In this document: positions 551-35,832 of the stretch, piece by piece
Numbering within the stretch: position 1 is the first letter of the stretch
How the letters are laid out: each line of letters starts with the position of its first letter
Assembly: GCA_018262895.1 (NCBI GenBank)
Contig: JADFDJ010000018.1
Location: 1 to 38,986, forward strand
DNA: 38,986 nucleotides
Direction: 5' to 3'
Source of the DNA: Methanomassiliicoccus sp.
GTDB taxonomy: Archaea > Thermoplasmatota > Thermoplasmata > Methanomassiliicoccales > Methanomassiliicoccaceae
Program-made: the position numbers and the translations under genes
The notes under the pieces: model-generated
Seen by the model: the letters and a program-made list of their open reading frames with translations, nothing else
Told to the model about the DNA's origin: nothing
The model's database searches: none

Positions 551-1921
551 CTAACATTTACCATATTGAACGTCTAGGGGACCTACGACCAACCCTTTTT
601 TAGTCCTTACACCAATATCTTCTAGGTCCTCATCTTTTAATTCATCGACAAGCATCATCAGTCTTCTACCCATTTGTTCGATAAGACCAACCACGAGTGC
701 ATTGCCCATGCAGAAGTACCGCCAGTTCTCCGGCATCCCCTCTGTCCAGCCATCCTCGAAGCCGTTCAAACGCTCTGCTTCCACTGGGGTAAGAACACGA
801 TAGAGGTTTCTGCTCTCATCCACAGGAACGATATGGCTGATCCTGTTCGGCCTCCTGTTCCCATCGCTGGTCAGTAGCGTCCTGGACGGTTCATCGAGCT
901 TGTCCGGAAAGGGGATGGGGCCTTCATTATACTGGTATTCATGCCCGTTCCTATGAACGCGTGGCTCATCCTTCGCTCCTTTGCAGTATCTCCACGTCCT
1001 TTTGAAGCCGTCGGTTCCTCGGTCCTTCTCATCACCTATCCACTCTTCTGGTATGAGATATCTATCGTCGACGCTCTTCTCGAGCACACTGCCAAGGGTT
1101 CCCGTTCCAGTACTTCTGTCACATGTTACGGTAGGGACCACCCTTACAGTGAAGACCCTGCCATCTATCATGTAGCCAGCGTTCTGGAAATCAAACTCGA
1201 ACTTGTTTGTCATACGAACCAGATCTGACCAAAGGCAGATGGAAGCCCCTTTCGCATCGCCGTTCAATCTGCATGGGAACTCGGGTGCGAAGAACCCGTT
1301 GTCGGTCAGGACTTCGATATCGTACTTTCTCTCGTAGAGCGACCGAACGGTCTCCTTGACCAATGTCGCGAAGATGAATGTCCTTCTCCTTTTTTGAGGA
1401 TAGCCATAGTCGGAGGCATTGATGACCCTCCATTCTGCCACATATCCCATGTTGTTTAGGCAGGACAGGATGATACCGAAGTCCCTGCCCCTCTGTCCGG
1501 AAGGCGATCGAATGAGCCTATCGACGTTCTCCAGCAGCACGAACGGTATGGGCGTCCCTCTTTCCACGTTCTCCTTGAGTATCCTTTCGATGTGCCACCA
1601 CAGAACGCCCTTCTTCCCTTCGATCCCATTGGCCTTCGTGGTCGCGACCGAGTAGTCCTGGCATGGGAACCCCCCGACCAGCAGGGTCACGTGCGGTATG
1701 TCCTTCACATCCACCTTGCCGATGTCCTCGTTCACGCATTCGGTACCAGAGGCCGCAAAGTGCCTCTTGTAGCAATTAAAGGCCCATTGCTGTTTCCTTC
1801 CAGGCTCCCATTGGTTCGCCCAGACGACCCTCCATCCGCTCTTGGACAGTCCCAAGTGGAACCCTCCGACACCGGCGAATAGCTCACAAGCGGTCAGGTC
1901 TCTATCGCGCATCTCTCTCAC
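551..1921 (-). CDS. dcm: DNA (cytosine-5) methyltransferase of a type II R-M system
   Basis: This enzyme transfers a methyl group from S-adenosylmethionine to C5 of cytosine and protects host DNA from the neighbouring restriction enzyme. Motif I FAGVGGFHLGL lies at residues 15-25, motif IV GFPCQDYSV at 84-92 with catalytic Cys87, motif VI ENVDRL at 131-136 and motif VIII QKRRR at 176-180. A variable target-recognition region follows, then SRTLLTSDG and the C-terminal GNALVVGLI (motif X). At 456 residues it has a normal full length. The GTG start at 1921 overlaps the TGA of the restriction gene by four bases; an ATG at 1912 is an alternative start. It is the last gene of the minus-strand vsr-REase-MTase operon. 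By analogy with Sau3AI systems the target may be GATC, but specificity cannot be read from the sequence. Confidence 0.95.
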   Translation of the reverse strand: MREMRDRDLTACELFAGVGGFHLGLSKSGWRVVWANQWEPGRKQQWAFNCYKRHFAASGTECVNEDIGKVDVKDIPHVTLLVGGFPCQDYSVATTKANGIEGKKGVLWWHIERILKENVERGTPIPFVLLENVDRLIRSPSGQRGRDFGIILSCLNNMGYVAEWRVINASDYGYPQKRRRTFIFATLVKETVRSLYERKYDIEVLTDNGFFAPEFPCRLNGDAKGASICLWSDLVRMTNKFEFDFQNAGYMIDGRVFTVRVVPTVTCDRSTGTGTLGSVLEKSVDDRYLIPEEWIGDEKDRGTDGFKRTWRYCKGAKDEPRVHRNGHEYQYNEGPIPFPDKLDEPSRTLLTSDGNRRPNRISHIVPVDESRNLYRVLTPVEAERLNGFEDGWTEGMPENWRYFCMGNALVVGLIEQMGRRLMMLVDELKDEDLEDIGVRTKKGLVVGPLDVQYGKC

Positions 1922-3345
1922 CCAATGATATGAGATTCGCTTTCAGCAGATGATAACTTCGATTGCTTGCCAACTACGTGCGCTTCAGCGCCAACCTGTT
2001 GGGCGACATATTTTGCGTTAAGCCAGAAGCACTGCTTCCTCACCATCGAACCATCCGGAGCCCTTACCTTGTCTTGAGCATTTCGGCCATGAGGCCGAAT
2101 GTGGGAAACATGGTTATCCGTCATTTTAGGCAGGTCCTCATATCTCTTTTGCTTTATACGACGGACGGTCTCCTCCCACACTTTACGCACCTCCTCAAGG
2201 TCACTGTGAGGCATTGTCCAGAACATAACCTTCTTAAGTATTTTTTTACCATCCGGTCTCAACTGATAGATGACGAACAAAAATCTTCTCTCGAACATCT
2301 TCCTGATGGACGAGGTCTCCCAGTCCACCTCCTTTTCGAGTAAGACCGGATCGAACGCAGGAAATGATACGCTCTCCTTCATACCGCCGTCCACCTCAAG
2401 CTTGATGCTCCTTATTGTCACCTCGGCCCTCTCGAGCTCGAGCGCCCTCCGTTCAACGCCCAGTATTTTTCTCGTCATGAGCGCATTGTAATGTTTCACG
2501 TCTTTGCCATATTCTATCCCGAGCACGGATGCGATCTCCTCGGTGCTCTTACCGATGAAGGGAGCAAAGTGATCTATGACAATCTCCTCAAAAGACCGTC
2601 TCTCCAACTCCTTCTGGTCCTTTATGATCTTGTTAGCCATCTCTCTCTCGGAGTCCTGTTCCCTCATTCTCTGTATGATGGAGTTCACGTACGACTGCTT
2701 CAGGGCCAATGCCCTCTGCTTAGCTCGAATCTCAGAGAACGGCTGGACCTTTATTGCTCGAGAGAAGCTGTCCTTGGTGCATGCTCCCAGGTACATGGTA
2801 TCACCCTCCGATATCTCGTGAGCCTTCCCCGCCCTGACCTTAGCTCGGATGGTCTCCCAGTCCCTCCTGATGATCATCAGGTCATCCTCTGGGAAGGCCC
2901 ATCGACCTGCAAGCACCACCTTGAGATCGATGACCGACTGACGCTCTTTATGAACGTAGAACACCAGCAGTAGGTCACGATTCTTCCTCCAGAACGCTGA
3001 CGACAACCAATCCTCGTCCGCGATCTTCTCATAATTAATTAGATTGAGGACCAGTCGTTCCTTGGCCTTCAGAACGTCCCCCCTCTGTAGCGTGGGGCAG
3101 GACTTCAGCTCCACCCCTGCCTCGGAGAAATCCGGTACGCCGTCATGGTTTCCCGGACTTATCTTGAAGTATAGCCGTTCTAAAACCTCTCCGAAGGACC
3201 CTTTATTCTTAGATACTGATGGATAGGTGATGGAACCTTCTTCACTGGTCAACTCCTTCAGCGAGTGGCCCACTAGGCGGCGGGCGAAGCGTTCGATAGA
3301 TACCGGGTCCTTTTCATCGTACATCTTCTCCAACTTCCCACTCAT
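1918..3345 (-). CDS. Sau3AI/MutH-like type II restriction endonuclease
   Basis: This is a predicted DNA endonuclease that cuts unmethylated target sites. The N-terminal half contains the MutH/Sau3AI nuclease core: KGSFGEVLERLYF at about 48-60, then PDFSEAGVELKSCP at 71-84. The latter supplies the Asp72, Glu79 and Lys81 catalytic set (D-x6-E-x-K). The 475-residue length fits Sau3AI-type enzymes, which carry a second catalytically inactive MutH-like domain used in DNA binding. The C-terminal half here has no second D/ExK motif that I can see. The gene overlaps vsr upstream by 32 bases and the methyltransferase downstream by 4 bases, so the three are probably translated together. GATC specificity is an inference from family membership. 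Confidence 0.88.
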   Translation of the reverse strand: MSGKLEKMYDEKDPVSIERFARRLVGHSLKELTSEEGSITYPSVSKNKGSFGEVLERLYFKISPGNHDGVPDFSEAGVELKSCPTLQRGDVLKAKERLVLNLINYEKIADEDWLSSAFWRKNRDLLLVFYVHKERQSVIDLKVVLAGRWAFPEDDLMIIRRDWETIRAKVRAGKAHEISEGDTMYLGACTKDSFSRAIKVQPFSEIRAKQRALALKQSYVNSIIQRMREQDSEREMANKIIKDQKELERRSFEEIVIDHFAPFIGKSTEEIASVLGIEYGKDVKHYNALMTRKILGVERRALELERAEVTIRSIKLEVDGGMKESVSFPAFDPVLLEKEVDWETSSIRKMFERRFLFVIYQLRPDGKKILKKVMFWTMPHSDLEEVRKVWEETVRRIKQKRYEDLPKMTDNHVSHIRPHGRNAQDKVRAPDGSMVRKQCFWLNAKYVAQQVGAEAHVVGKQSKLSSAESESHIIG

Positions 3346-3856
3346 TCGGATCTCTCCTAATATCCCTTCCTATTCTTCGGACAATACCATCGATATCATC
3401 CTTCAGTTCACATTCCCAGACAACGATGGTTCGCCATCCTTGGGTCTTGAGCTCATCAAGGTTCCTGGCATCCCTGGACACGTTCCTTTCGAACTTCTCC
3501 GCCCAGAACCTTTCATGGGACTTAGGGGTGCAGGTTTGGCAAATGGGGCATCGATGCCAAAAGCAACCGTGGACGAAGATGGCCAACCGTCGCTTTGTGA
3601 AAACTATATCTGGCCTTCCGGGCAGGTCTTTGAGATTGACCCTGAACCCCCTTAGACCGGCGGCCCACAACGCCTTCCTGAGAGCGATCTCCGGTCCGGT
3701 GTCCTTACCTCGATTGGCGCTCATCACCCGTGAGGTTGCATCAGACAAGGGGATGGGTGCTCGGCCATCCCTTAGGTAATTTACCTCCTTGGCAGCCTTT
3801 CTGATAGGCATCAGCACGGTCGCTCCTATGATAATCCCCATCGCTGATTTGGCCAA
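3314..3856 (-). CDS. vsr: Vsr-type T:G mismatch nick endonuclease
   Basis: Very-short-patch repair endonucleases nick next to T in T:G mismatches formed when 5-methylcytosine is deaminated, so they usually accompany C5 methyltransferases. The core begins at about residue 45 with MSANRGKDTGPEIALRKALW and continues with LPGRPDIVF (catalytic Asp83), FVHGCFWHRCPIC (His96 and His101 plus zinc-binding cysteines), NVSRDARN and WRTIVVWECEL with the late zinc Cys. About 40 extra residues precede the usual start, so translation may begin at an internal Met such as residue 16. It is the first gene of the R-M operon. Its presence supports methylation at C5 by the neighbouring enzyme. Confidence 0.93.
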   Translation of the reverse strand: MAKSAMGIIIGATVLMPIRKAAKEVNYLRDGRAPIPLSDATSRVMSANRGKDTGPEIALRKALWAAGLRGFRVNLKDLPGRPDIVFTKRRLAIFVHGCFWHRCPICQTCTPKSHERFWAEKFERNVSRDARNLDELKTQGWRTIVVWECELKDDIDGIVRRIGRDIRRDPNEWEVGEDVR

Positions 3857-3988
3857 TCAAGGTTGCTATCCATTACTGATAGGACTGGAATAGTCCTGAG
3901 GTAAGCAACCCATGTGATGAATGGAACACCGGTCCTGGGATTGGGATGGATATGACAGGGGCCTCAGCTACTCTCACTGGATATTATC

Positions 3989-4016
3989 ATGACATTATAT
4001 CACTTGATGACATTAT
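3989..4016 (+). promoter_or_regulatory. Direct repeat ATGACATTAT x2 in the divergent promoter
   Basis: The 10-mer ATGACATTAT occurs at 3989-3998 and again at 4007-4016, 18 bases apart. The segment between and within them (ATTATATCAC) can serve as a TATA element about 30 bases before the ATG at 4029. No Shine-Dalgarno site precedes that ATG, so the transcript may be leaderless. The repeats lie in the 172-base region between vsr and the nuclease-helicase operon and could bind a regulator acting on either direction. Confidence 0.5.
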
Positions 4017-4028
4017 CCGGTCGAAACC

Positions 4029-5162
4029 ATGGCCGGAGGTATTTTCCTGATCCAATCGAACGGAGCCCTTAGCAAGATGGATGACACACCATACGAGAAG
4101 GAACTGGACCTGCAGCGATTGCTTGCAGACTACCCAGACCTACTGGCCGGAGACCAGATAGATAACAGGTCGCCCCGACGGTGGCTTCTCATTTCCAGAG
4201 AACTAGCATTGCCGTCTGAGGAGGATGGGCCCGGTCGCTGGTCCGTGGACCATCTGTTCGTGGACCAGGATGCCATCCCAACGATCATCGAGACCAAGCG
4301 TGGAGGCAACACCCAGATCAGAAGGGAGATCGTGGGGCAGATGCTCGAGTACGCAGCGAACGCCGTTCTCTACTGGCCAATCGACATCCTCAAGGAGAAC
4401 TTCAGGAACCGCTGCAGGGAAGAAGGCCAGGAGCCGGAGCAGGTCCTATCACAGTTCCTCGGTGGAGCGCTCGACGTTCAGGCCTTCTGGAGCAATGTGG
4501 AGACCAATCTGAGGTCAGGCAAGATACGACTCCTCTTTGTCTCCGACAAGATCCCAGAAACGCTCGTTCGTATTGTCGAGTTCATGAACCAGCAGATGCG
4601 CGATGCAGAGGTGCTCGCTGTCGAGATCCGGCAGTTCGTCTCCGAGGAGCACAAGGCCCTCGTTCCCCGGGTGCTCGGACAGACCGAAGAGGCCAAAGCC
4701 GCGAAATCAACGATCACATTGCCAAGGCAAGACGAGGGAACGTTCCTTGCGAGCTTGAGTGATGGAAGGAGAGCAATTCACCAGGCGATCCTTTCACTGA
4801 AGGAAACAGAGGGATTTCGAATTAACTGGACGGCACGCGGATACTCGTTATCATACGTGCTCGATAAAAGACCCATCCTGTTGCTTCAAGGGAACCTTCC
4901 GTACGGCAATTTCGATGAGGGGTGCTATTCCACGTTCTGGAGCATCAGAAAGAACGTCCCGCGTTCTGTAGATCTGATCATGAAGTACAGAGAAAGGTTA
5001 TTGGCCACCGGTCTGTTCGAAAAATCCAGTAACACATCAGAGGTCCGATGCACGTCAAAACTCGAACTTGACGAAAGGAAAGCAACAGAACTGGTCAGAT
5101 TGATGAAAGACCTCGTGTCCGACCTTCGAAAGCTCAGCAGCGAAGCTACTATCTCAGAGTAA
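4029..5162 (+). CDS. PD-(D/E)XK endonuclease-like protein, NucS-like fold
   Basis: This is a predicted DNA nuclease of 377 residues. The N-terminus has the helical segment YEKELDLQRLLADYPDLLAG seen in NucS/DUF91-like proteins. The nuclease core follows: WSVDHLFVD with Asp74, IIETKRGGN with Glu88 and Lys90, and QMLEYAAN at 104-111. A second half (about 230-377) has no motif I can name. It is the first gene of a plus-strand run; the AddB-like gene starts 30 bases after its stop. The start ATG sits just downstream of a TATA-like element, and a second in-frame ATG at 4077 lies nearer the conserved segment. Proteins of this kind often sit in defence islands. The substrate is unknown. Confidence 0.75.
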   Translation: MAGGIFLIQSNGALSKMDDTPYEKELDLQRLLADYPDLLAGDQIDNRSPRRWLLISRELALPSEEDGPGRWSVDHLFVDQDAIPTIIETKRGGNTQIRREIVGQMLEYAANAVLYWPIDILKENFRNRCREEGQEPEQVLSQFLGGALDVQAFWSNVETNLRSGKIRLLFVSDKIPETLVRIVEFMNQQMRDAEVLAVEIRQFVSEEHKALVPRVLGQTEEAKAAKSTITLPRQDEGTFLASLSDGRRAIHQAILSLKETEGFRINWTARGYSLSYVLDKRPILLLQGNLPYGNFDEGCYSTFWSIRKNVPRSVDLIMKYRERLLATGLFEKSSNTSEVRCTSKLELDERKATELVRLMKDLVSDLRKLSSEATISE

Positions 5163-5192
5163 CACGCTCACCCGCTCGGAGAGAGGAGCGGG

Positions 5193-8100
5193 TTGAGGCA
5201 TTCTAGGCTCGTCAGGTCAATGCCAGTCCAAGGTTTGAACGAAGTCGTTGAGTGCTTCCTGGAAAAATACAAGAGGAACCCGTTCGGATCGTTCCTTGTC
5301 CTGCCAGATCCTGCGATACGAGACCGGGTGAGACGGGGATTGGTAGAACGAGATATTCCTTTCTTCGGAGCATCGATCTGTACGACCGATGAGCTGGCCA
5401 AATATATCTTCGACTCCCTCAACCGGTCGGACACCATAGTAGATGAGCATACTATCGATCTCTCTCTGCTGAAGGTGCTGAGGGACAACGAGAAACAGCT
5501 CACATGGTTCGATGGGACATGGGTAACGGCCCAGGCCATGGTGCCTGAGATCAGGTCGTTCTTGGAGACCGTGGCAGACTTCCGAGCCGATCGTCCGAAC
5601 ATCCTGTCCGAGCTCCAGACGAAGCGAGGCGAACAGCTACGGTTGATCAGTGAGGGATACGAAAGATTCCTCTCGTCCAACCACCTGGTGGATCGTGGGC
5701 GCATGCTCGAATGGGCGACCGGAGCGGTCAAGAGCGGCGACTTCAGGGTCGATCACCTGGTCTTCTACGGACTGTATGATCCGAAGCCAGTGGAGAAGGC
5801 ATTCATCCGTGCATTGGTCGGTATAGCCAACGATGTGGATTACTACATCCCCCATGTCCAAGGGTGCAAGGCCTTCGTGGATGACGGCTCATGGCTGAAC
5901 GTCCAGGTGATAGAGGACATATCATCTGTCGAAGAAGAATGTGTGATGACATCCATGTTCTCTCCCAGCATGAGGCAGCATCTAGAACGAGTGAAGAAAG
6001 GGGTGTTCCGGGACCCCATAGACGAGATCCGGACCGTGGCCAGGGAGATTCGTTCGCTTATATCCTCGGGCGTGGTGCCGGGAAAGATTGCCATCTTTCT
6101 ACCACTTCGCTCCAAATCAGCCCCCGTGGTCCGGGAGGTGCTGGACGACTACGGAGTTCCGTTCGTTCTCCATCTGCCGACCCCGTTGTCAGAGTCGCCC
6201 ATCGTGATGTCCATATTCTCCATCCTAGAGGCCGTGGAGATGGAATTCGACCGCGATTCAGTCGTCCGCCTGTTAAGCTCCCCGCACTTCAGCTTCAAGT
6301 TCACCGACGGAGGAAAGGAGTCGACCCTTCATTGCAACGATGTCAACGAGATTAGCCTGCAAGCAGGTATACTAGGCGGCAAGACGTCCTGGGCCCTCCA
6401 CCTGCGATCGCTAGCGCTCCAGACCAGGGAGGAGATCGAGAAGGCGGAGGACGATATTAAGGCGATGGGCCTCAAACTTCAGCTCCAGAAGGTCGAAGGC
6501 ATTGAGGCCGGTTTAGGACAGCTCTTCGACCTCCTTTCATGGCTGGAAGGAGACCTCACCGTTGGACGGAGGACCGACGCGTTGCGCAGGATCATCGATC
6601 ATCTGGAAGTGGTCAAGAACATTGAGAAGGATGACGACAGCCTATACGAAATGGAGGTCCGCGCCCTGAACAAATTCCTATCCACCTTGGATGCGATGCA
6701 GATGAGCGAGCACATCGCCCCCTCAGGAAGTATGCAGATAAGCGAGTTCCTGGCCCGATTGCGGCTCTTGGCCTCATCGGAGGGATTCAACGAGGCCGAT
6801 GAAAACCTAAATGCGGTACAGGTGAGCGGCCTTAGGGCCTCGTACCTGATGCGCTACGACTACGTCTTCATCATAGGGATGATCGACGGCGACATCCCAT
6901 ACCTGGAGGCGGGAAACGCGTTCATCCGGGAGCGCGAGGCCGTCAGGATAGGCTTGCTTAGCAAGCACGATCAGCTGCGTCAGGAGCGTTTCTACTTCCT
7001 CTCCGCCCTGCTGTCGTCCAATATCCGCACCTACGTCAGCAGGCCGGAGACGAACGGCAAGGACATGCTGGTCCCCTCGTGCTTCTTCGAGGACCTTGAG
7101 CGAGCGTTCGAGATGGGATCGTTCGGTCAGGACCAAGAGGAATCCTCCTCCCTGTGCTGCCAGAGCATTGTGGGAGGGATGCTGTCGAAGAAGCTCACCC
7201 CTGAGCAAGTGAGAGTTGACCTGCCATTGCCGCTGGAGGAGGTATGCCAGCGCACCTCGGTGGAGTGCCTTGAGCGCATTGGCGAATATGATAGCCCATA
7301 CGATGGAGTGTTCGCCGATCCCACATGCATCGCCGAGCTGGGCTCACTACTGGCCAAGAGGGGAGTGTACTCCCCCTCACGCCTGGAATCTTACGCCCGC
7401 TGCCCTTTCCGCCACTACCTGAACTACATCATGAGCATCGAGCCGGTGGAGGCGATCGAGACGGAGCTGACCGCGCAGGAGAGAGGCCTGCTGTTCCACA
7501 GGATAGCTTACCGCTTCTACTCCGGTCTCAGGGCACAAGGGAGCACGCGGTTCACGGAGGGCCGGCTGGACGAGCTAACAGCTCAGATGAAGAGCATCGC
7601 GGAGGAGGAGCTCGATAAATATCATTATCAGGGCCCGGCCTGGGAGGCCTTCCGGAACAGCATGCTGGGCACGGATGCCAGGAAGGGTCTGCTCCGGGCG
7701 TTCCTGGAGAAGGAGGTGAAGAACGTATCCTCATTGTGCCCCAGGTACTTCGAGCTCTCGTTCGGCCTGCCGCTGGATGATGACGCAGATCCGTCCTCAT
7801 CGAGGGAGCCGGCAGAGATGGACCTTGGCGGCGAGAAGCTGAAGCTCAGATGCCGCATCGACCGTATCGATGCTACTCCAGACGGCCGGTTCGTGGTCCT
7901 GGACTACAAGACCGGTGCATCGACCCCCTCCGTCTCGTCTATAGAGAATGGCGTGGCGCTGCAGCTCCCGCTTTACATCCAGGCCGTGGAGAACGCCATG
8001 CCGGATATGAAAGGCATCGGCGGAGCCTACTACGGGGTCAGGAGCGAGAACGAGATCGACCACAAGTGCATCTTCGGGGACAGCGAGCACGGCGACGAGC

Positions 8101-8315
8101 TGAAGCCGTACTTCGGGGAGAGGAGGAAGTACAAGGACGCGTTCGCGGAGATCATCCGGCAATCGAACGGATACATCGCCTCGTACCTCAAGGGGATGAG
8201 AGCAGGACGGTTCAACCCCAACAAGGGGCCGGCGAAGTGCCCGCGGGGCTGCGAGTACGCGGCGATATGCCGCGTCGACCCCAGCAGGATGGAGGGCGAG
8301 AGCGATGATGAGTGA
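5193..8315 (+). CDS. AddB/RexB-like nuclease subunit with Fe-S cysteines
   Basis: This is the predicted partner of the downstream AddA-like helicase in a DNA-end resection complex. The C-terminal RecB-type PD-(D/E)XK nuclease has FHRIAYRFY, a DRID motif, DYKTG with Asp904 and Lys906, and QLPLYIQAVE. Four cysteines that flank the nuclease in AddB Fe-S domains are present: Cys737 in YARCPFRHYL, and Cys1016, Cys1020 and Cys1026 in CPRGCEYAAIC. The N-terminal helicase-like half lacks a recognisable Walker A, unlike AddB of Bacillus, so it is probably not an active motor. The TTG at 5193 follows a purine-rich ribosome site; the ATG at 5220 is an alternative. The stop overlaps the next gene by 11 bases, indicating translational coupling. 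Confidence 0.88.
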   Translation: MRHSRLVRSMPVQGLNEVVECFLEKYKRNPFGSFLVLPDPAIRDRVRRGLVERDIPFFGASICTTDELAKYIFDSLNRSDTIVDEHTIDLSLLKVLRDNEKQLTWFDGTWVTAQAMVPEIRSFLETVADFRADRPNILSELQTKRGEQLRLISEGYERFLSSNHLVDRGRMLEWATGAVKSGDFRVDHLVFYGLYDPKPVEKAFIRALVGIANDVDYYIPHVQGCKAFVDDGSWLNVQVIEDISSVEEECVMTSMFSPSMRQHLERVKKGVFRDPIDEIRTVAREIRSLISSGVVPGKIAIFLPLRSKSAPVVREVLDDYGVPFVLHLPTPLSESPIVMSIFSILEAVEMEFDRDSVVRLLSSPHFSFKFTDGGKESTLHCNDVNEISLQAGILGGKTSWALHLRSLALQTREEIEKAEDDIKAMGLKLQLQKVEGIEAGLGQLFDLLSWLEGDLTVGRRTDALRRIIDHLEVVKNIEKDDDSLYEMEVRALNKFLSTLDAMQMSEHIAPSGSMQISEFLARLRLLASSEGFNEADENLNAVQVSGLRASYLMRYDYVFIIGMIDGDIPYLEAGNAFIREREAVRIGLLSKHDQLRQERFYFLSALLSSNIRTYVSRPETNGKDMLVPSCFFEDLERAFEMGSFGQDQEESSSLCCQSIVGGMLSKKLTPEQVRVDLPLPLEEVCQRTSVECLERIGEYDSPYDGVFADPTCIAELGSLLAKRGVYSPSRLESYARCPFRHYLNYIMSIEPVEAIETELTAQERGLLFHRIAYRFYSGLRAQGSTRFTEGRLDELTAQMKSIAEEELDKYHYQGPAWEAFRNSMLGTDARKGLLRAFLEKEVKNVSSLCPRYFELSFGLPLDDDADPSSSREPAEMDLGGEKLKLRCRIDRIDATPDGRFVVLDYKTGASTPSVSSIENGVALQLPLYIQAVENAMPDMKGIGGAYYGVRSENEIDHKCIFGDSEHGDELKPYFGERRKYKDAFAEIIRQSNGYIASYLKGMRAGRFNPNKGPAKCPRGCEYAAICRVDPSRMEGESDDE

Positions 8316-11300
8316 GCGTCAGAAGGAGGCTATGGACCGCTCGCGCTCGCTGTGCGTCACCGCCGGGGCGGGCGCGGGGAAGACGTTCACGCTGGTGGAG
8401 AAGTACATCCACCTCATCAAGAGCGGCGTCGCTGTCTCCGAGATACTAGCCCTGACGTTCACCGAGAAGGCCGCAGCGGAGATGAAGCACCGCGTGCGCG
8501 AGGCCGTCATGAAGCTGCCGGGCGAGGAGTGGGACAGGGTCAGGGACGAGATCAACTGGTGCAAGATATCCACCTTCCACGCGTTCTGCGTCAACGTCAT
8601 CCGCGAGTTCCCGCTGGAGACCGGGGTCTCGCCCAACTTCAAGGTGCTGGAGGAGGTGGAGCGCAGGGAGCTTCAGAAGGAGGCCTGGGACCGGCTGCTG
8701 TCGCCTCCTGTCGACCGTGCGATCAACGACGCCCTGGTGCGCCTCCTGGCCGACATCCCCATGTCCAAGCTGATGGGCAGCATCCAGTTCATGTACGACC
8801 GCCGCTCGGAGGTCTCTACCTTCCTCGATTCGTTCAGGACGAAGGAGGAGCTGCTCGCCCGATGGAGCGAGATCGCCGACCTCTACCGGAAAGACGTGCT
8901 CGGCCGATGCCTTTCGGACACCGGGTTCATGAGCGCTGTCGAAGTGCTCCGTGCCCTTGCCATCAAGCACGGCGGCGGCAAGGACTCAGGGTGCAGGTAT
9001 CTGAGGGCGGTCGCCCCCTTGCTCGAAGAGATAAAGCCGGGAGCTCAGGAAGAGGCAGCGTGCAGGGCCGTCAGCGAGCTGAGGACGGTCAGGATCACGA
9101 GGAACGGGGGCAGCAAGCAGATGTTCGGCTCAGACCTGGAACGGTTCCGGGACGCGGTCGCGGAGGTCCAGTCGGCGCTCGAGCGCCATGGCACCGACGT
9201 TCTTGATGATGGAGCAGATGATCTCAACGACACGGCGGCCTCGATCATCCTGGACCTGAAGCTGGTCCTCGGCGCCTACCAGACGATCGTCAAGGGCATG
9301 AAGCGGGACAGCAACGCCATAGACTTCGAGGACATGATAGCCATCGTCCACGATCTCTTCGTCAGGGAACCGGGGACGGTCAAGCAGGAGTTCACCGACA
9401 GTTACCGCTACATCCTGGTGGACGAGTTCCAGGATACGGACGCCGTTCAGAGCGATATCATCTGGAGGATGGCTGGCGAGGAAGAAGCGAAGGAGCGGCT
9501 GTTCATCGTCGGCGATCCCAAGCAGTCCATCTACCTCTTCCGCAACGTCGATGTGTCGATGTTCAAGGACTTCCAGGGAAGGATCAACGATATGCTGGGA
9601 GGGAGGAGCATCCACCTCGATACCAACTACCGCTCCTCCCCCCAGGTCATCGAATTCGTGAACCATGTCTTCGGCCAGCTCATGGGCGAGGCCAGGGAGA
9701 GGTGGGAGTTCCGGTACCAGGAGATGAGGTGCTGCGAGGAAAGGATGAAGGACGAGGGCTCGGTCGAGCTGCTTCTCCTTCCCGAAGAGGGCGGCTCGGA
9801 GGCGGACTTCGTCGCCCGTCGGATACGCGACATCGTTGACAACGGATCAAGGGCGGTGTGCTGGTCAGAGGATGGGAAGAAGCATCTGGACACGCCTAGG
9901 CCGGCAGGTTACGGCGACATCGCCATCCTCCTGAGGGCGAAGACGCGGCTCCACGCGCTCGAGGACGCCCTGGGCCGTTACGGGATCCCGTACCGCGTCC
10001 ACGGGGGCCTGGGGTTCTTCGAGAGGCAGGAGATCATCGACCTTACCGTCCTTCTCTCCTTCCTCAGCAACGAGGATGACGACCTCTCCCTCTACGGTGT
10101 GCTGCGCTCCCCCTACTTCGCGTTCTCGGACGAGCAGTTCTTCCACATGCTCGGACGGCGGCACGGCTCCCTGTGGAACGAGCTCAAGGCGTACGCCGCG
10201 GATGCGGAGGACGAGCATACGAGAGCCTCGGTCAATAGGCTGGACCGCTGGCTCCACTACGCGCCGAGGCTGACCGTCCCCCAGCTGCTGAGCATGGTGT
10301 ACCGCGAGTCTGGGATCTTCGCGGTGTACGGTGCCCTGCCGGACGGGGAGCAGATGATCGCCAACCTCGAGAAGCTGCTGTCGATGGTCAGGAACGCCCA
10401 CTCGTCCGGCTTCCTCTCCCTGTCGGAGTTCAAGAGGTGGATGGAGCTGAGCATGGAGGCCGGAGCGAAGGAAGGCCTGGCTCAGCTCGCCGGCGGCGAG
10501 GGCTCGGTGAAGGTCATGACCGTCCACGCGGCCAAGGGACTGGAGTTCCCCATAGTCTTCGTGCCGGAGATGAACTTCATCAGGAACGATGACCCGTCCC
10601 TCCTCCTCTTCTCCGAGGACATGGGCCTGGGAGCGGACGCCCCGGACCCAACGGACGGATACAAGCTGAAGGCCTCGATGCCCAAGAGGCTGATCTCCAG
10701 GGAGCTGGGATCGAAGGGGTCAGCGGAGAGGAAGCGCCTCCTCTACGTGGCTCTGACGCGAGCGAAGGACCACCTGGTGATGTGCGGCAGCATGCCCAAC
10801 GAGAAGGACCAGGAGAAGGAGCTGTGGATCAACTGGATCACGCAGGCCGCGTCCATCGGCCCCGAGGACATCGGGTCCGGGGTCAAGGTCATCAGCTCGA
10901 AGCTATCAATGTCCATAGTCCAGGACCCCATGGCGTTCGAGGCGGAGGAGAGGGACACCGCCACCGGGTCCCTACTGGGTCCTGAAGAGCTGAGCGGATC
11001 CATCGTTCCTCGACCTAAGATCGAGGTGGTCCCGACCCCGCCGCCACGCTCCCCCTCCAAGGCGCACGAGCGGAGGAGGACCGATCCTACGGTCAGGGAG
11101 AGGTCGGAGCCGCCACAGATCGTCGAGAAGGGAGAGATGAGCTACCTCGATATTCCTACGGTCAGAGGAACGATCATACACGAGGTCCTGAGCGGCAAGG
11201 AAGCATCCACAGTGCTCAGGAGGTACGGCATCACCGATGCTTCGAGGGAGAGGGAGTTCTCCGCGATGTACGAGAGGCTCATGTCCGAGCCTATGATGGT

Positions 11301-11577
11301 AGGGGCCAAGGCGGTCTTCCGGGAGCTGGCGTTCATGGCCAAGGTCGACGGCGAGGTCTACAAGGGCAGGATCGACATGCTAGTGCAGAGTGAGGACGGG
11401 TCCTGGCTCGTGGTGGACCACAAGACCGGTCGCTTTGACGATGAGATCGGTGAGGGGAAGGTCAAAGAATACAGGCTCCAGATGGAGATATATGAGAAGG
11501 CAATAGCCGATCTGGTCAAGAAGAAGGTCAGCTCCTCGCTGTGGCTGGTCGACGAGGAGCGGACGATCACACTCTGA
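8305..11577 (+). CDS. AddA/RexA-like UvrD-family helicase-nuclease
   Basis: This is a superfamily 1A DNA helicase with a C-terminal nuclease, predicted to unwind and cut double-strand ends. It has Gln6 of the Q motif, Walker A AGAGAGKT at about 20-27, LTFTEKAAAEM (Ia), DEFQDTD at 373-379 (motif II), GDPKQSIYLFR from 403 (III), TNYRSSPQVIEFVN (IV), TVHAAKGLEFPIVF around His741 (V) and LLYVALTRAKDHLV from 812 (VI). The nuclease follows with TIIHEVLSG, GRIDML, DHKTG (Asp1038, Lys1040) and YRLQMEIYEKAI. At 1090 residues it matches AddA length. It overlaps the AddB-like gene by 11 bases and ends the operon. Both subunits keep nuclease motifs, as in AddAB rather than RecBCD. Base composition looks richer in G+C than the R-M genes. 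Confidence 0.93.
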   Translation: MMSERQKEAMDRSRSLCVTAGAGAGKTFTLVEKYIHLIKSGVAVSEILALTFTEKAAAEMKHRVREAVMKLPGEEWDRVRDEINWCKISTFHAFCVNVIREFPLETGVSPNFKVLEEVERRELQKEAWDRLLSPPVDRAINDALVRLLADIPMSKLMGSIQFMYDRRSEVSTFLDSFRTKEELLARWSEIADLYRKDVLGRCLSDTGFMSAVEVLRALAIKHGGGKDSGCRYLRAVAPLLEEIKPGAQEEAACRAVSELRTVRITRNGGSKQMFGSDLERFRDAVAEVQSALERHGTDVLDDGADDLNDTAASIILDLKLVLGAYQTIVKGMKRDSNAIDFEDMIAIVHDLFVREPGTVKQEFTDSYRYILVDEFQDTDAVQSDIIWRMAGEEEAKERLFIVGDPKQSIYLFRNVDVSMFKDFQGRINDMLGGRSIHLDTNYRSSPQVIEFVNHVFGQLMGEARERWEFRYQEMRCCEERMKDEGSVELLLLPEEGGSEADFVARRIRDIVDNGSRAVCWSEDGKKHLDTPRPAGYGDIAILLRAKTRLHALEDALGRYGIPYRVHGGLGFFERQEIIDLTVLLSFLSNEDDDLSLYGVLRSPYFAFSDEQFFHMLGRRHGSLWNELKAYAADAEDEHTRASVNRLDRWLHYAPRLTVPQLLSMVYRESGIFAVYGALPDGEQMIANLEKLLSMVRNAHSSGFLSLSEFKRWMELSMEAGAKEGLAQLAGGEGSVKVMTVHAAKGLEFPIVFVPEMNFIRNDDPSLLLFSEDMGLGADAPDPTDGYKLKASMPKRLISRELGSKGSAERKRLLYVALTRAKDHLVMCGSMPNEKDQEKELWINWITQAASIGPEDIGSGVKVISSKLSMSIVQDPMAFEAEERDTATGSLLGPEELSGSIVPRPKIEVVPTPPPRSPSKAHERRRTDPTVRERSEPPQIVEKGEMSYLDIPTVRGTIIHEVLSGKEASTVLRRYGITDASREREFSAMYERLMSEPMMVGAKAVFRELAFMAKVDGEVYKGRIDMLVQSEDGSWLVVDHKTGRFDDEIGEGKVKEYRLQMEIYEKAIADLVKKKVSSSLWLVDEERTITL

Positions 11578-12032: not shown

Positions 12033-12902
12033 TTACTGGAGGTAGAAGATGTCCGCGACGTTGTCGCCGGCAGAGGTCACCCTCATGCTCTTTCCGCGTC
12101 CCTCCTTCTCGTCGACCCAGCCGTTCCTGATCCACCCATCGATGTAGTGGCGCGAGTAGTACATCTTCTCCGCCTGCAGGGCCCTCTCCCCGTGCCTGGT
12201 GTCCTTGTCCTTGAGCTTGGGGAGCCTCTCCGCGTCATAGGTCCACGCACCAGCCTCCTTGATGGATTGAATCATAGCTGAGTATTTAGTGGACTGACCT
12301 CTCTTCTTCCTATCTCGAAGTATCCTCAGCGCCACAACAAGGTCCTCGGGAGGCGGGCTCAGGTGGAATGTGGGCAGCTCGGTGGGCTCCCGAACCTCCC
12401 TGGACTGCCCGACGAGCTTGCCATCTATGCTGTAGCACTCCCTGATCCTGTCCTCTCCGGAGATGGTGTACTCCTTCGTGTGCACGGTGAACGGTTTCAC
12501 GCCCTTCACCATCATGGAGGCCACGGTGGCCGCGGCCGCGAACTCACTGGTCCCCGCGGAGACGTTGACGTACACGTCGTTCTCCATCTCCATCTCATGG
12601 GACATGACCGCCAGCAGTTCGGCCAGCACCTTCTTGAACCTGAAGACCTCGACCTTCCTCTCGACGATATCCTCATCCTTCAATCCTAGCTCGTTAAGCT
12701 GCCGCACCACCTCGCAGTAAAATTCACTGTAGATGCTGCTCTTCTTATCGGAACCCATCCCCCAATGGAGCAGATAGACCCTCTCGGCGCGCAGGTCCCG
12801 TATCGGCTGGACGATCTTCACGGTCTCGAACGTCACGCAGCTGATCACCACACGCAATCTGGGAGCGATACCTGCCGCAGGTCCGCTATCCGAGGTTGTC
12901 AT
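12033..12902 (-). CDS. HFX_2341-family (DUF6293) regulator, CARF-like N-terminus and winged helix
   Basis: This is a predicted ligand-sensing transcription regulator. The N-terminal Rossmann-like half starts LRVVISCVTFETVKIVQPI, continues with VYLLHWG, and has a glycine/serine loop YVNVSAGTSEFAAAATVAS. That loop corresponds to the ligand-binding loop of CARF domains. The C-terminal third (KLKDKDTRHGERALQAE onward, then SRHYIDGWIRNGWVDE and VTSAGDNVADIF) reads as a winged helix. The open frame extends to 12965, but a TATA-like GTTATATTA lies inside that extension at about 12950-12958, and the ATG at 12902 is preceded by GGTGA, so 12902 is preferred. It is divergent from the 13010 gene across a short shared promoter region. 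No CRISPR or Cas gene is present here. Confidence 0.8.
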   Translation of the reverse strand: MTTSDSGPAAGIAPRLRVVISCVTFETVKIVQPIRDLRAERVYLLHWGMGSDKKSSIYSEFYCEVVRQLNELGLKDEDIVERKVEVFRFKKVLAELLAVMSHEMEMENDVYVNVSAGTSEFAAAATVASMMVKGVKPFTVHTKEYTISGEDRIRECYSIDGKLVGQSREVREPTELPTFHLSPPPEDLVVALRILRDRKKRGQSTKYSAMIQSIKEAGAWTYDAERLPKLKDKDTRHGERALQAEKMYYSRHYIDGWIRNGWVDEKEGRGKSMRVTSAGDNVADIFYLQ

Positions 12903-13009
12903 TTCTTCACCATCTCGAGATCGATGAACTGTGATTGTAACACCAATATCTAATATAACATTCATAACGTTATAATGTTTACCTACTTCTCACAAGAATA
13001 CTCCCCTCG
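12903..13009. promoter_or_regulatory. Divergent promoter region with two TATA-like elements
   Basis: This 107-base segment separates the HFX_2341-type regulator (minus) from the 13010 gene (plus). For the minus gene, a TATA-like element at about 12950-12958 would start transcription near 12930. For the plus gene, GTTATAATGTTT near 12970-12981 would start transcription near 13000-13010, so the mRNA may be leaderless. The inverted segment AACGTTATAATGT lies between them and could be a binding site for the regulator itself. Confidence 0.45.
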
Positions 13010-14439: not shown

Positions 14440-14997
14440 CTACTTCCTGTATTCCTTGCCGCTCGAGAACGCCTTCCCCACGACCTCTCCCAGGCGATAG
14501 TAGTTGTAGGCGGAGTAGATGATGGGGTCGATCTTCTTGGGATCCGGCTTTCCATCGGTCATGCAGTCCTTGGACATGAGGACGTCGACGACCTCCCCGA
14601 TGTGGAGGTTGTGGCTCCCCAGCTCGAGGCTGTGACGCAGCTCGCATTCGATGTTCACCGGGAACTCGCTGATCAGCGGAGCGGTCGCCAGTTTTCCATA
14701 GAAGGTCTCGAAGACCAGGTGCTTGTCGACCTTGCTGCCGGAGGTTATCCCGCAGTAGTCCATTTCCACAACGTTCTTGGTGGATGGTATGTTGACGCTG
14801 AACGTCCCGTTCTCGATGATCCCTTTCTCGGTATACCTGGATCTGTTGATAGCGATGGAGATCGCCGGAGGGTCCATGCACGCGACGCCCGTCCACGCTA
14901 CGGTCATGTAGTTCGGCTTCCCATCGACATTGGCACCGACCAGCACCGCCGGCATGACCGTCATGTACGGTTTGAACGCAAAGGATACCTTGTCCAA
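14440..14997 (-). CDS. Flavin reductase-like (flavoredoxin) FMN-binding protein
   Basis: This is a predicted FMN-binding oxidoreductase of the flavin reductase-like split-barrel fold, in which flavoredoxin is the nearest archaeal/anaerobe type. The sequence has the family layout: PAVLVGANVDGKPNYMTVAW near the start, PPAISIAINRSRYTEKGI, NGTFSVNIPS (the family signature), the Y/C-GITSGSKVDK segment, and PVNIECELRH followed by GEVVDVLMSKDC. At 185 residues it is full length. The start is a TTG at 14997 preceded by GGTGAT. A palindrome CCACAATGTGG lies 8 bases upstream and a TATA-like element behind it. A paralogue sits at 35227-35832. The physiological electron donor is unknown. Confidence 0.88.
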   Translation of the reverse strand: MDKVSFAFKPYMTVMPAVLVGANVDGKPNYMTVAWTGVACMDPPAISIAINRSRYTEKGIIENGTFSVNIPSTKNVVEMDYCGITSGSKVDKHLVFETFYGKLATAPLISEFPVNIECELRHSLELGSHNLHIGEVVDVLMSKDCMTDGKPDPKKIDPIIYSAYNYYRLGEVVGKAFSSGKEYRK

Positions 14998-35226: not shown

Positions 35227-35832
35227 TCACCGTTTCAGCTTCTTCCCTATATCCCAGCACTTTGCGAACGGCCTTCCGAGCTTCCAGTACTCCTTGCGGT
35301 ACATATCGAAGAGCATCGGCCTGACCTTCTCCAGGTCGATGTTGCCGTCGGTCATGACACTTTCGTCGCAGTACGAGGCCACTATCTCACCGATGAAGAT
35401 CTGATGGGTGGAAAGGTCCAGCGTCTGGTACAAGCGGCACTCCATGTTCACCGGGGACGACACCACCATGGGCGCTGTTCCCAGCTCCCCATAAAAGGCC
35501 TCGAATAGATGCGATTTGTCCTCCTTCCTGCCGCTCACCAGACCGGCATAGTCGGTCTCCACCACATCGTCTTCTGAGGGGATGTTCACGCTGAAGGTCC
35601 CGTTCTCCTTGATACCCTGGACGGTATAGTGCTTGCTCTGAATCCCTACGGAGATGTACTGGGGGGTACTGAAGTTCAGGATCCCCACGTGCGCGATGGG
35701 AAGATAGTTGGGGCGGCCTCCGACGTTGGCCCCCACGATCGTCACTGGCATCGGGTACAAGCAAAGGCTTGGTCCTAGGTTCTTCTTCATATGAGTCCAA
35801 ACATGATGGCGATACCATAGTAAAAACTGCAT
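35227..35832 (-). CDS. Flavin reductase-like protein, second copy
   Basis: This is a paralogue of the protein at 14440-14997, with the same family order: PVTIVGANVGGRPNYLPIAHV, QYISVGIQSKHYTVQGI, NGTFSVNIPSEDDVVETDYAG, and the PVNMECRLYQTLDLSTHQIF segment followed by GEIVASYCDES. It would bind FMN. The open frame begins at 35832; the ATG at 35790 (MKKNLGPSLC) matches the usual N-terminus better but neither has a convincing ribosome site. It lies about 50-90 bases downstream of the histidine kinase gene on the same strand, so co-transcription is possible and links the sensor with a redox protein. Confidence 0.87.
   Translation of the reverse strand: MQFLLWYRHHVWTHMKKNLGPSLCLYPMPVTIVGANVGGRPNYLPIAHVGILNFSTPQYISVGIQSKHYTVQGIKENGTFSVNIPSEDDVVETDYAGLVSGRKEDKSHLFEAFYGELGTAPMVVSSPVNMECRLYQTLDLSTHQIFIGEIVASYCDESVMTDGNIDLEKVRPMLFDMYRKEYWKLGRPFAKCWDIGKKLKR

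What the first reader, a model, noticed from the sequence alone, without database searches (positions are those of the whole stretch)
551..11577. R-M-Vsr operon facing a nuclease-AddB-AddA operon
Two divergent units share one short promoter region: Vsr, a Sau3AI-like enzyme and a C5 methyltransferase on one side, and a PD-(D/E)XK protein with AddB- and AddA-like subunits on the other. Restriction creates double-strand ends, which the AddAB-like complex is suited to process, so a joint defence island is plausible. The stand-alone nuclease at the head of the second operon is the unexplained part.
Basis: partly seen in the sequence, partly recalled or inferred. Interest (0 to 1): 0.75.

Follow-up and report, generated by a model that had tools for sequence, protein, structure and literature searches.

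The report
Archaeal AddAB operon beside restriction cassette
In a methane-producing archaeon, genes for a DNA-end-chewing machine normally thought of as bacterial (AddAB) sit next to a restriction system, and relatives show the machine staying put while the neighbouring restriction system changes, which suggests it may destroy the viral DNA that different restriction systems mark or cut.

Summary
In detail: C5 methyltransferase, Sau3AI-type endonuclease and Vsr (minus strand) face a PD-(D/E)XK nuclease, AddB and AddA (plus strand) across 217 bp. The host genome carries McrA, so it is a methanogen.

The narrow idea of a dedicated Sau3AI-AddAB unit fails. Across 147 genomes of the order the two do not co-occur (Fisher p=0.40), and the Vsr-Sau3AI-methyltransferase cassette usually stands alone. 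The nuclease is a solo NucS/Shedu-like gene: 0 of 35 relatives elsewhere lie near addAB. Its place before addB is shared only with one species of the same genus. A related but distant nuclease adjoins addBA in two other archaeal lineages.

The broader idea gains support. Archaeal addBA repeatedly adjoins different restriction or modification systems: Sau3AI R-M, DndFGH, DrmD-methylase-DruE-like genes, type III and Hma-like methylases and, on haloarchaeal plasmids, BREX. BREX lies within 2 kb in 6 of 11 plasmids carrying both (0.3 expected, P=9e-8). Near-identical addBA modules (85-93% DNA identity) carry unrelated systems upstream. AddA and AddB keep every catalytic and Fe-S residue.

Best reading: AddAB is a constant end-processing module beside exchangeable restriction systems. 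Functional coupling is inferred, not shown.

The parts
551..1921 (-). C5-cytosine DNA methyltransferase of the R-M cassette (motifs GGFPCQ, LLENV, PQKRRR intact)
   Evidence: PF00145 193.9 bits; dcm superfamily TIGR00675 199.6 bits; PADLOC MTase_II 1e-136; motifs read from the translation
1918..3345 (-). Sau3AI-type restriction endonuclease (expected site GATC); catalytic DFSEAGVELK (D...E-x-K) present
   Evidence: NF040973 433 bits, cut-off 300; MutH PF02976 88 bits
3314..3811 (-). Vsr mismatch endonuclease; ORF opens at TTG 3856, likely start ATG 3811
   Evidence: TIGR00632 133.8 bits, cut-off 97.85; ATG with GGAG upstream read from the sequence; the G135 homologue starts at about the equivalent place
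3812..4028 (.). 217-bp divergent intergenic region; TATA-like AT-rich stretch about 30 bp before the nuclease ATG, compatible with a leaderless archaeal transcript (read by eye, not tested)
   Evidence: sequence
4029..5162 (+). NucS/Shedu-like PD-(D/E)XK nuclease with a variable C-terminal domain (about residues 236-377)
   Evidence: invariant D74 H75 L76 F77 V78 D79 Q80 D81 P84 and near-invariant E88, K90, R98, R99, Q104 in 28 relatives; AF2 model pLDDT 82.5; Foldseek NucS prob 0.99, EndoMS 0.94, SduA 0.63, all E>0.02; PADLOC PDC-S11 E=5e-10
5193..8315 (+). AddB: helicase-dead (no Walker A), Fe-S cysteines C737, C1016, C1020, C1026, nuclease D890, D904, K906, Q924
   Evidence: PF12705 126.9 bits; all eight residues invariant in 40 archaeal AddB proteins; N-termini without Walker A
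8305..11577 (+). AddA: SF1A helicase plus C-terminal nuclease (K26, D373, E374, R443, R819; D1024, D1038, K1040, Q1059)
   Evidence: TIGR02785 406 bits; PDB 3u44 250 bits; residues invariant in 41 archaeal AddA proteins except a truncated end in G126
12033..12965 (-). CARF plus winged-helix protein of the HFX_2341/DUF6293 family, convergent with addA; probable island member (regulator)
   Evidence: PF19810 and PF22665; lies near addAB in every genome of the order found with both: G000, G015, G126, G134 and a remnant in G017

Best explanation
The locus is an archaeal defence island built on an AddAB helicase-nuclease. AddB-AddA is the constant part. Beside it lies an exchangeable restriction system, here a self-contained Sau3AI-type (GATC) R-M cassette with its own Vsr repair enzyme. 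Proposed mechanism: the restriction system recognises and cuts foreign DNA lacking its modification; AddAB loads on the double-strand ends, unwinds with AddA and degrades both strands with its two nuclease domains, while a host Chi-like sequence would convert it to repair on the host's own chromosome. Vsr corrects T:G mismatches left when the methylated cytosine deaminates. The stand-alone nuclease is a separate solo defence-type gene of the NucS/Shedu-like PD-(D/E)XK kind that was captured in front of addB in this genus. Shown: gene identities, intact catalytic residues, repeated neighbourhood and partner exchange. Inferred: that AddAB acts on ends made by the neighbour, that archaeal AddAB has Chi control, and the nuclease's role.
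For: Residues: every AddA and AddB catalytic and Fe-S residue examined is invariant in 40-41 archaeal proteins. Neighbours in the same order: DndF-DndG-DndH directly after addA on the same strand in G015; DrmD-like helicase, split IIG/DrmMI-type methylase and DruE-like helicase directly after addA in G135; type III methylase next to addB and HmaB/PbeA-like genes nearby in G134. Haloarchaeal plasmids: BREX or DNA methyltransferase annotated within 13 kb in 14 of 27 addBA loci; BREX gap of 2 kb or less in 6 of 11 plasmids carrying both, expected 0.3, P=9e-8. Exchange: addBA blocks 85-93% identical in DNA, with similarity ending in the addB promoter region, carry BREX (L188), methylase plus DrmD-like helicase (L178, L187), Hma-like methylase (L185) or TIR/DUF262 genes (L184) upstream. 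Controls: 17 restriction/modification/nuclease queries gave no hit in 20 random 14-kb regions from the order; neighbours of addAB match 142 PADLOC families (71 proteins) against 48 for controls (117 proteins).
Against: No functional data. Proximity may reflect only a shared insertion hot spot (addBA often lies beside plasmid parA and cdc6). Sau3AI itself is not associated with addAB in the order (p=0.40). Several addBA loci have no visible restriction system (G137, G139, G141, L179, L194). In the family f29 genomes addBA has a stable non-defence-looking context. AddA and AddB score below the bacterial AddAB equivalog cut-offs. The 17 control queries came from addAB neighbourhoods, which favours a low control count.
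Confidence: 0.6

Rival explanations
1. Neutral co-location: addBA and restriction systems share a defence or plasmid hot spot, so they are often neighbours but do not work together.
For: Sau3AI and addB are independent across the order; many partners are unrelated to each other; on plasmids addBA lies between variable genes and parA, as expected of a hot spot; R-M cassettes are mobile by nature.
Against: In G015 and G135 addBA is co-directional with the restriction genes at gaps of about 150-240 bp; partners are mostly of one functional kind, modification-dependent restriction.
Confidence: 0.28
2. AddAB is a host repair enzyme: it resects and repairs breaks, including accidental self-cuts by restriction enzymes, and its defence link is secondary.
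For: Established role of bacterial AddAB; stable chromosomal context in f29 genomes; RmuC-like gene close to addB in G135 and Mre11/Rad50-like pairs near addBA in G126 and Halapricum.
Against: Patchy distribution: 11 of 147 genomes in the order and 19 of 390 in the phylum sample, unlike a core repair enzyme; common on plasmids.
Confidence: 0.22
3. Nuclease-AddB-AddA is a dedicated three-gene defence system in which the NucS/Shedu-like nuclease acts on DNA ends that AddAB cannot process, for example when a virus blocks AddAB.
For: Order conserved in G000 and G019 (76/67/76% identity); related nuclease right before addB-addA in Halalkalicoccus jeotgali and beside addA in G134; Gabija, OLD and retrons are known to respond to RecBCD inhibition and Shedu to DNA ends (PMC12904381).
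Against: 0 of 35 closer relatives lie near addAB; the closely related addBA of Halalkalicoccus FCH27 lacks the nuclease; most addBA loci lack it.
Confidence: 0.12
4. Dedicated joint unit of Sau3AI R-M-Vsr with nuclease-AddAB.
For: Divergent layout across 217 bp; a MutH/Sau3AI-family endonuclease also sits directly before addB in Haladaptatus QDMS2, next to BREX.
Against: No co-occurrence in the order; G019 has the operon without the cassette; G135 has both about 195 kb apart.
Confidence: 0.05

Closest known systems
Bacterial AddAB (B. subtilis 3u44 type) helicase-nuclease
   Same: addB-addA gene pair; AddA SF1A helicase with C-terminal nuclease; AddB with inactive helicase part, Fe-S cysteines and nuclease
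   Different: Archaeal host; below NCBIfam equivalog cut-offs (406 of 708 bits for AddA, 93 of 904 for AddB); patchy and often plasmid-borne; set beside changing restriction systems; Chi recognition unknown
Sau3AI R-M systems with Vsr
   Same: Sau3AI equivalog model passed; C5 methyltransferase; Vsr; the same kind of cassette in most of the 17 other Sau3AI genomes of the order
   Different: Nothing unusual apart from its neighbour
BREX-5 and DISARM/Dnd-type islands in archaea
   Same: These modification-dependent systems are the usual neighbours of haloarchaeal addBA and of addBA in G015 and G135
   Different: addBA is not listed as a component; the BREX diversity paper PMC12839542 does not use AddAB, AddB, RecB or UvrD
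NucS/EndoMS and Shedu SduA nucleases; PADLOC candidate PDC-S11
   Same: Predicted fold, D-x13-E-x-K spacing, conserved Q after the lysine
   Different: No Pfam NucS_C or SduA match for this protein; different C-terminal domain; function untested

Membership tests
AddAB helicase-nuclease | AddA: Walker A/B and arginine motifs of an SF1A helicase plus C-terminal PD-(D/E)XK nuclease | tested here: met
   K26, D373, E374, R443, R819, D1024, D1038, K1040, Q1059 conserved; PDB 3u44 250 bits
AddAB helicase-nuclease | AddB: C-terminal nuclease flanked by four Fe-S cysteines | tested here: met
   C737, C1016, C1020, C1026 and D890, D904, K906, Q924 invariant in 40 proteins
AddAB helicase-nuclease | Scores above the NCBIfam addA/addB equivalog cut-offs | tested here: not met
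   406.4 of 707.65 bits (addA_Gpos), 93.4 of 903.7 (addB_Gpos); TIGR03623 best for AddB, 109.7 of 299.6. Hence called AddAB-type, not a bacterial equivalog
AddAB helicase-nuclease | Chi-regulated end resection | not testable with these tools
   needs purified enzyme or genetics
Sau3AI restriction endonuclease | NF040973 equivalog score and MutH-type active site | tested here: met
   433 bits, cut-off 300; DFSEAGVELK in the translation
Sau3AI restriction endonuclease | Cleavage at GATC blocked by the partner methyltransferase | not testable with these tools
   specificity inferred from family only; GATC in the window 257 against 285 expected, no strong avoidance
Vsr endonuclease | TIGR00632 above cut-off, next to a C5 methyltransferase gene | tested here: met
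   133.8 bits, cut-off 97.85
NucS/EndoMS | NucS_C (PF01939) match and EndoMS fold | tested here: inconclusive
   No Pfam match; Foldseek prob 0.94-0.99 but E 0.03-0.08
Shedu SduA | SduA_C (PF14082) match | tested here: not met
   1 of 28 relatives at E=0.08 only
PADLOC PDC-S11 | Strong match to the PDC-S11 models | tested here: inconclusive
   window 5e-10 over the nuclease part; G134 relative 9e-64; PDC-S11 is itself only a candidate
Dedicated R-M/AddAB unit | Co-occurrence and adjacency of Sau3AI R-M and addAB in other genomes | tested here: not met
   2 of 11 addB genomes carry Sau3AI, p=0.40
AddAB-anchored restriction island (proposed) | addBA adjacent to some restriction/modification system more often than random placement | tested here: met
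   BREX gap of 2 kb or less in 6 of 11 plasmids, 0.3 expected, P=9e-8; 4 of 9 resolved order loci

The most novel reading that the evidence does not exclude
Archaeal AddAB is a shared effector for modification-dependent restriction systems: BREX, Dnd, DISARM-like and R-M front ends plug into the same addBA module, and where a NucS/Shedu-like nuclease heads the operon it acts as a back-up on ends that AddAB fails to process. AddAB would then supply the DNA degradation step not yet accounted for in archaeal BREX.
Probability: 0.2. Interest if true: 0.82.

Novelty: new variant of a known kind. Interest (0 to 1): 0.58.

Why it matters
AddAB is treated as a bacterial repair enzyme, while archaea are expected to resect ends with HerA-NurA and Mre11-Rad50. 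Finding intact AddAB in methanogens and on many haloarchaeal plasmids, linked to changing restriction systems, makes a direct test possible of whether end degradation is a separable module shared by different defence systems. It bears on what destroys DNA after BREX recognition, and suggests addBA as a marker for finding new archaeal defence systems.

Tried and rejected
Sau3AI-AddAB as a conserved pair: rejected by order-wide counts. Nuclease as a fixed AddAB subunit: rejected, 0 of 35 relatives near addAB and no widely recurrent neighbour. Nuclease on phages: no match in 50,697 phage records. Solved structure for nuclease or AddB by sequence: none. A TGA reported inside the G019 nuclease proved to be its ordinary stop near residue 370. 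CRISPR as the reason for the CARF gene: cas1 is absent from G000, G017, G126 and G134 and present in G015 only; no CARF relative near the haloarchaeal addBA loci read. GATC avoidance in the window: not striking. A sharp base-level insertion site upstream of addB: similarity first seemed to end at one base, but the shared block runs about 60 bp further in most plasmids, so it is simply the addB promoter region. Paper searches for archaeal AddAB with BREX gave nothing relevant; most subscription journals are not in that library.
Full report
WHAT IS THERE. The window is contig C9 of a 2.34-Mb, 99.7% complete genome that encodes McrA, so it is a methanogen; Methanomassiliicoccales is my inference, and kinship below uses the tool's own labels. 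The six genes are as described, with family scores in the observation check. MTase and REase overlap by 4 bp, REase and Vsr by 32 bp, nuclease and addB are 30 bp apart, and addB and addA overlap by 11 bp. The divergent gap is 217 bp if Vsr starts at ATG 3811. Operon structure is inferred from spacing only.

THE RESTRICTION CASSETTE. It is a normal Sau3AI-type system: the endonuclease passes the NF040973 cut-off (433 against 300 bits) and the Vsr model passes its own. In the order, 18 of 147 genomes have a Sau3AI relative, and a Vsr and a C5 methyltransferase lie beside it in nearly all. It is a self-standing unit. GATC specificity is inferred from the family.

THE NUCLEASE. No Pfam or NCBIfam model matches it. 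Its relatives share an N-terminal domain of about 230 residues with D74 invariant and E88, K90, R98, R99 and Q104 nearly so, and a variable C-terminal domain. AlphaFold2 gives a confident N-terminal domain. Foldseek's plausible enzyme matches are NucS/EndoMS (prob 0.94-0.99) and SduA (0.63), with weak E-values. The D-x13-E-x-K spacing agrees with NucS as I recall it from memory. Thirty-five relatives from Acidobacteria, cyanobacteria, Proteobacteria, Actinobacteria, haloarchaea and others have no AddA, AddB, Sau3AI or Vsr in their flanks of up to 10 kb, and no neighbour recurs widely. That scan favours close relatives, and some contigs were short. In the order only the same-genus genome G019 has it, again directly before addB. 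So it is a scattered solo gene that joined addBA in this genus.

ADDAB. AddA matches B. subtilis AddA best among solved structures. In 41 archaeal AddA and 40 AddB proteins every catalytic residue examined and all four Fe-S cysteines are invariant, apart from one protein cut by a contig end. AddB has no Walker A, as in AddAB and unlike AdnAB (the AdnAB contrast is general knowledge). Scores are below the bacterial equivalog cut-offs, so I call it AddAB-type. AddB occurs in 11 of 147 genomes of the order (leaving out two very weak matches) and 19 of 390 in a phylum sample.

DOES ADDAB GO WITH SAU3AI? No. Two of 11 addB genomes have Sau3AI against 16 of 136 others (Fisher p=0.40). In the second of the two, G135, the loci are about 195 kb apart. 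G019 keeps nuclease-addB-addA without the cassette; its divergent neighbours are a HerA-like ATPase and an AAA_23 protein.

DOES ADDAB GO WITH RESTRICTION IN GENERAL? The evidence says yes. G015: addB-addA is followed on the same strand by DndF, DndG and DndH. G135: addB-addA is followed by a DrmD-like helicase (718 bits), a IIG/DrmMI-type methylase split in two frames and a DruE-like helicase. G134: a type III methylase lies 0.6 kb from addB, and HmaB-like and PbeA-like genes lie 7-11 kb beyond addA. By contrast G137, G139 and G141 have no evident restriction genes nearby. Seventy-one neighbours of addAB matched 142 PADLOC families at E<=1e-8, against 48 for 117 control proteins; seventeen queries taken from these neighbourhoods had no hit in twenty random regions.

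HALOARCHAEAL PLASMIDS. AddB relatives are on 44 plasmid records, all haloarchaeal among those listed. I read 27 loci. Fourteen have BREX genes or a DNA methyltransferase annotated within 13 kb; several more have DrmD-like helicases by tblastn. In four Natrinema and Halocatena cases brxA is divergent from addB at 129-346 bp. Of 11 distinct plasmids with both a PglX-type BREX gene and addB, six have a gap of 2 kb or less (0.3 expected, P=9e-8) and nine 15 kb or less (2.2 expected, P=5e-6), under uniform placement. I left out one near-duplicate H. salinarum record. The test treats plasmids as independent and does not exclude a shared hot spot.

EXCHANGE. L178, L184, L185, L187 and L188 have addBA-parA blocks 91-93% identical in DNA and AddA proteins separated by branches of about 0.02. 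Upstream of addB they carry respectively a methylase with a DrmD-like helicase, TIR/DUF262 genes, an Hma-like methylase set, an Eco57I-type methylase with helicase, and BREX. Similarity stops in the addB promoter region. The AddAB module is constant and its neighbour changes, which is what the Sau3AI/HerA difference between G000 and G019 looks like too.

NUCLEASE AGAIN. Two independent addBA loci have a related NucS-like protein: G134 next to addA (PDC-S11, 9e-64; hhalign to the window family E=1e-8) and Halalkalicoccus jeotgali directly before addB-addA (hhalign E=1e-9), the same order as here. Its sister addBA in Halalkalicoccus FCH27 lacks it. This fits an optional island member, perhaps with affinity for addBA.

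CARF GENE. A CARF-winged-helix gene of the HFX_2341 family ends 0.46 kb after addA. In the order, every genome found with both genes has them within about 6 kb: G000, G015, G126, G134 and a remnant in G017. Random placement gives about 7e-10 for the four intact cases, ignoring shared ancestry. HFX_2341 is a global repressor that lowers cas expression (PMC11434293). In G055 the relative lies beside a Cas12a gene. It may regulate the island.

MECHANISM AND LIMITS. Restriction creates ends, AddAB degrades them: this follows from known RecBCD/AddAB biochemistry, not from data here. The strongest alternative is neutral co-location in a hot spot. I put the coupling reading at 0.6. I found no paper describing archaeal addBA with BREX in the held library, which is not proof of novelty.

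Noticed in passing
window 12033-12965; L072, L092, L094, L075: HFX_2341-type CARF-winged-helix gene lies within about 6 kb of addAB in every genome of the order found with both (four intact, one remnant), though cas1 is absent from most of these genomes.
   Followed up: partly
L109:6724-11586 (G055) and L108:6714-11384 (G071): The same CARF family sits beside a Cas12a gene (confirmed by Pfam in L109) with Cas4/Cas1/Cas2-sized genes behind it, a possible regulator of type V-A CRISPR in this archaeal order.
   Followed up: partly
L199:4890-5738 (Haladaptatus sp. QDMS2 plasmid): A 282-aa MutH/Sau3AI-family endonuclease sits alone between BREX-5 pglZ and addB-addA, with no C5 methyltransferase annotated beside it.
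   Followed up: no
L169:12054-17085 (G135): A IIG/DrmMI-type methylase is split over two overlapping frames (978 and 730 aa), a possible frameshift or phase-variable gene, between DrmD-like and DruE-like helicases.
   Followed up: no
L071:14583-19001 and L147:348-3366 (G019): Unknown 347-aa protein, HerA-like ATPase and a 704-aa Rad50-like ATPase occupy the slot taken by R-M in the window; possibly an undescribed defence operon.
   Followed up: partly
L095:3403-7232 (G126) and L190:7535-12417 (Halapricum plasmid): Mre11/Rad50-like pairs lie close upstream of addB in two unrelated archaea, so two end-resection machines are neighbours.
   Followed up: no
window 14440-14997 and 35227-35832: Two similar flavin-reductase-like proteins about 20 kb apart on the same strand (by eye from the translations).
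   Followed up: no
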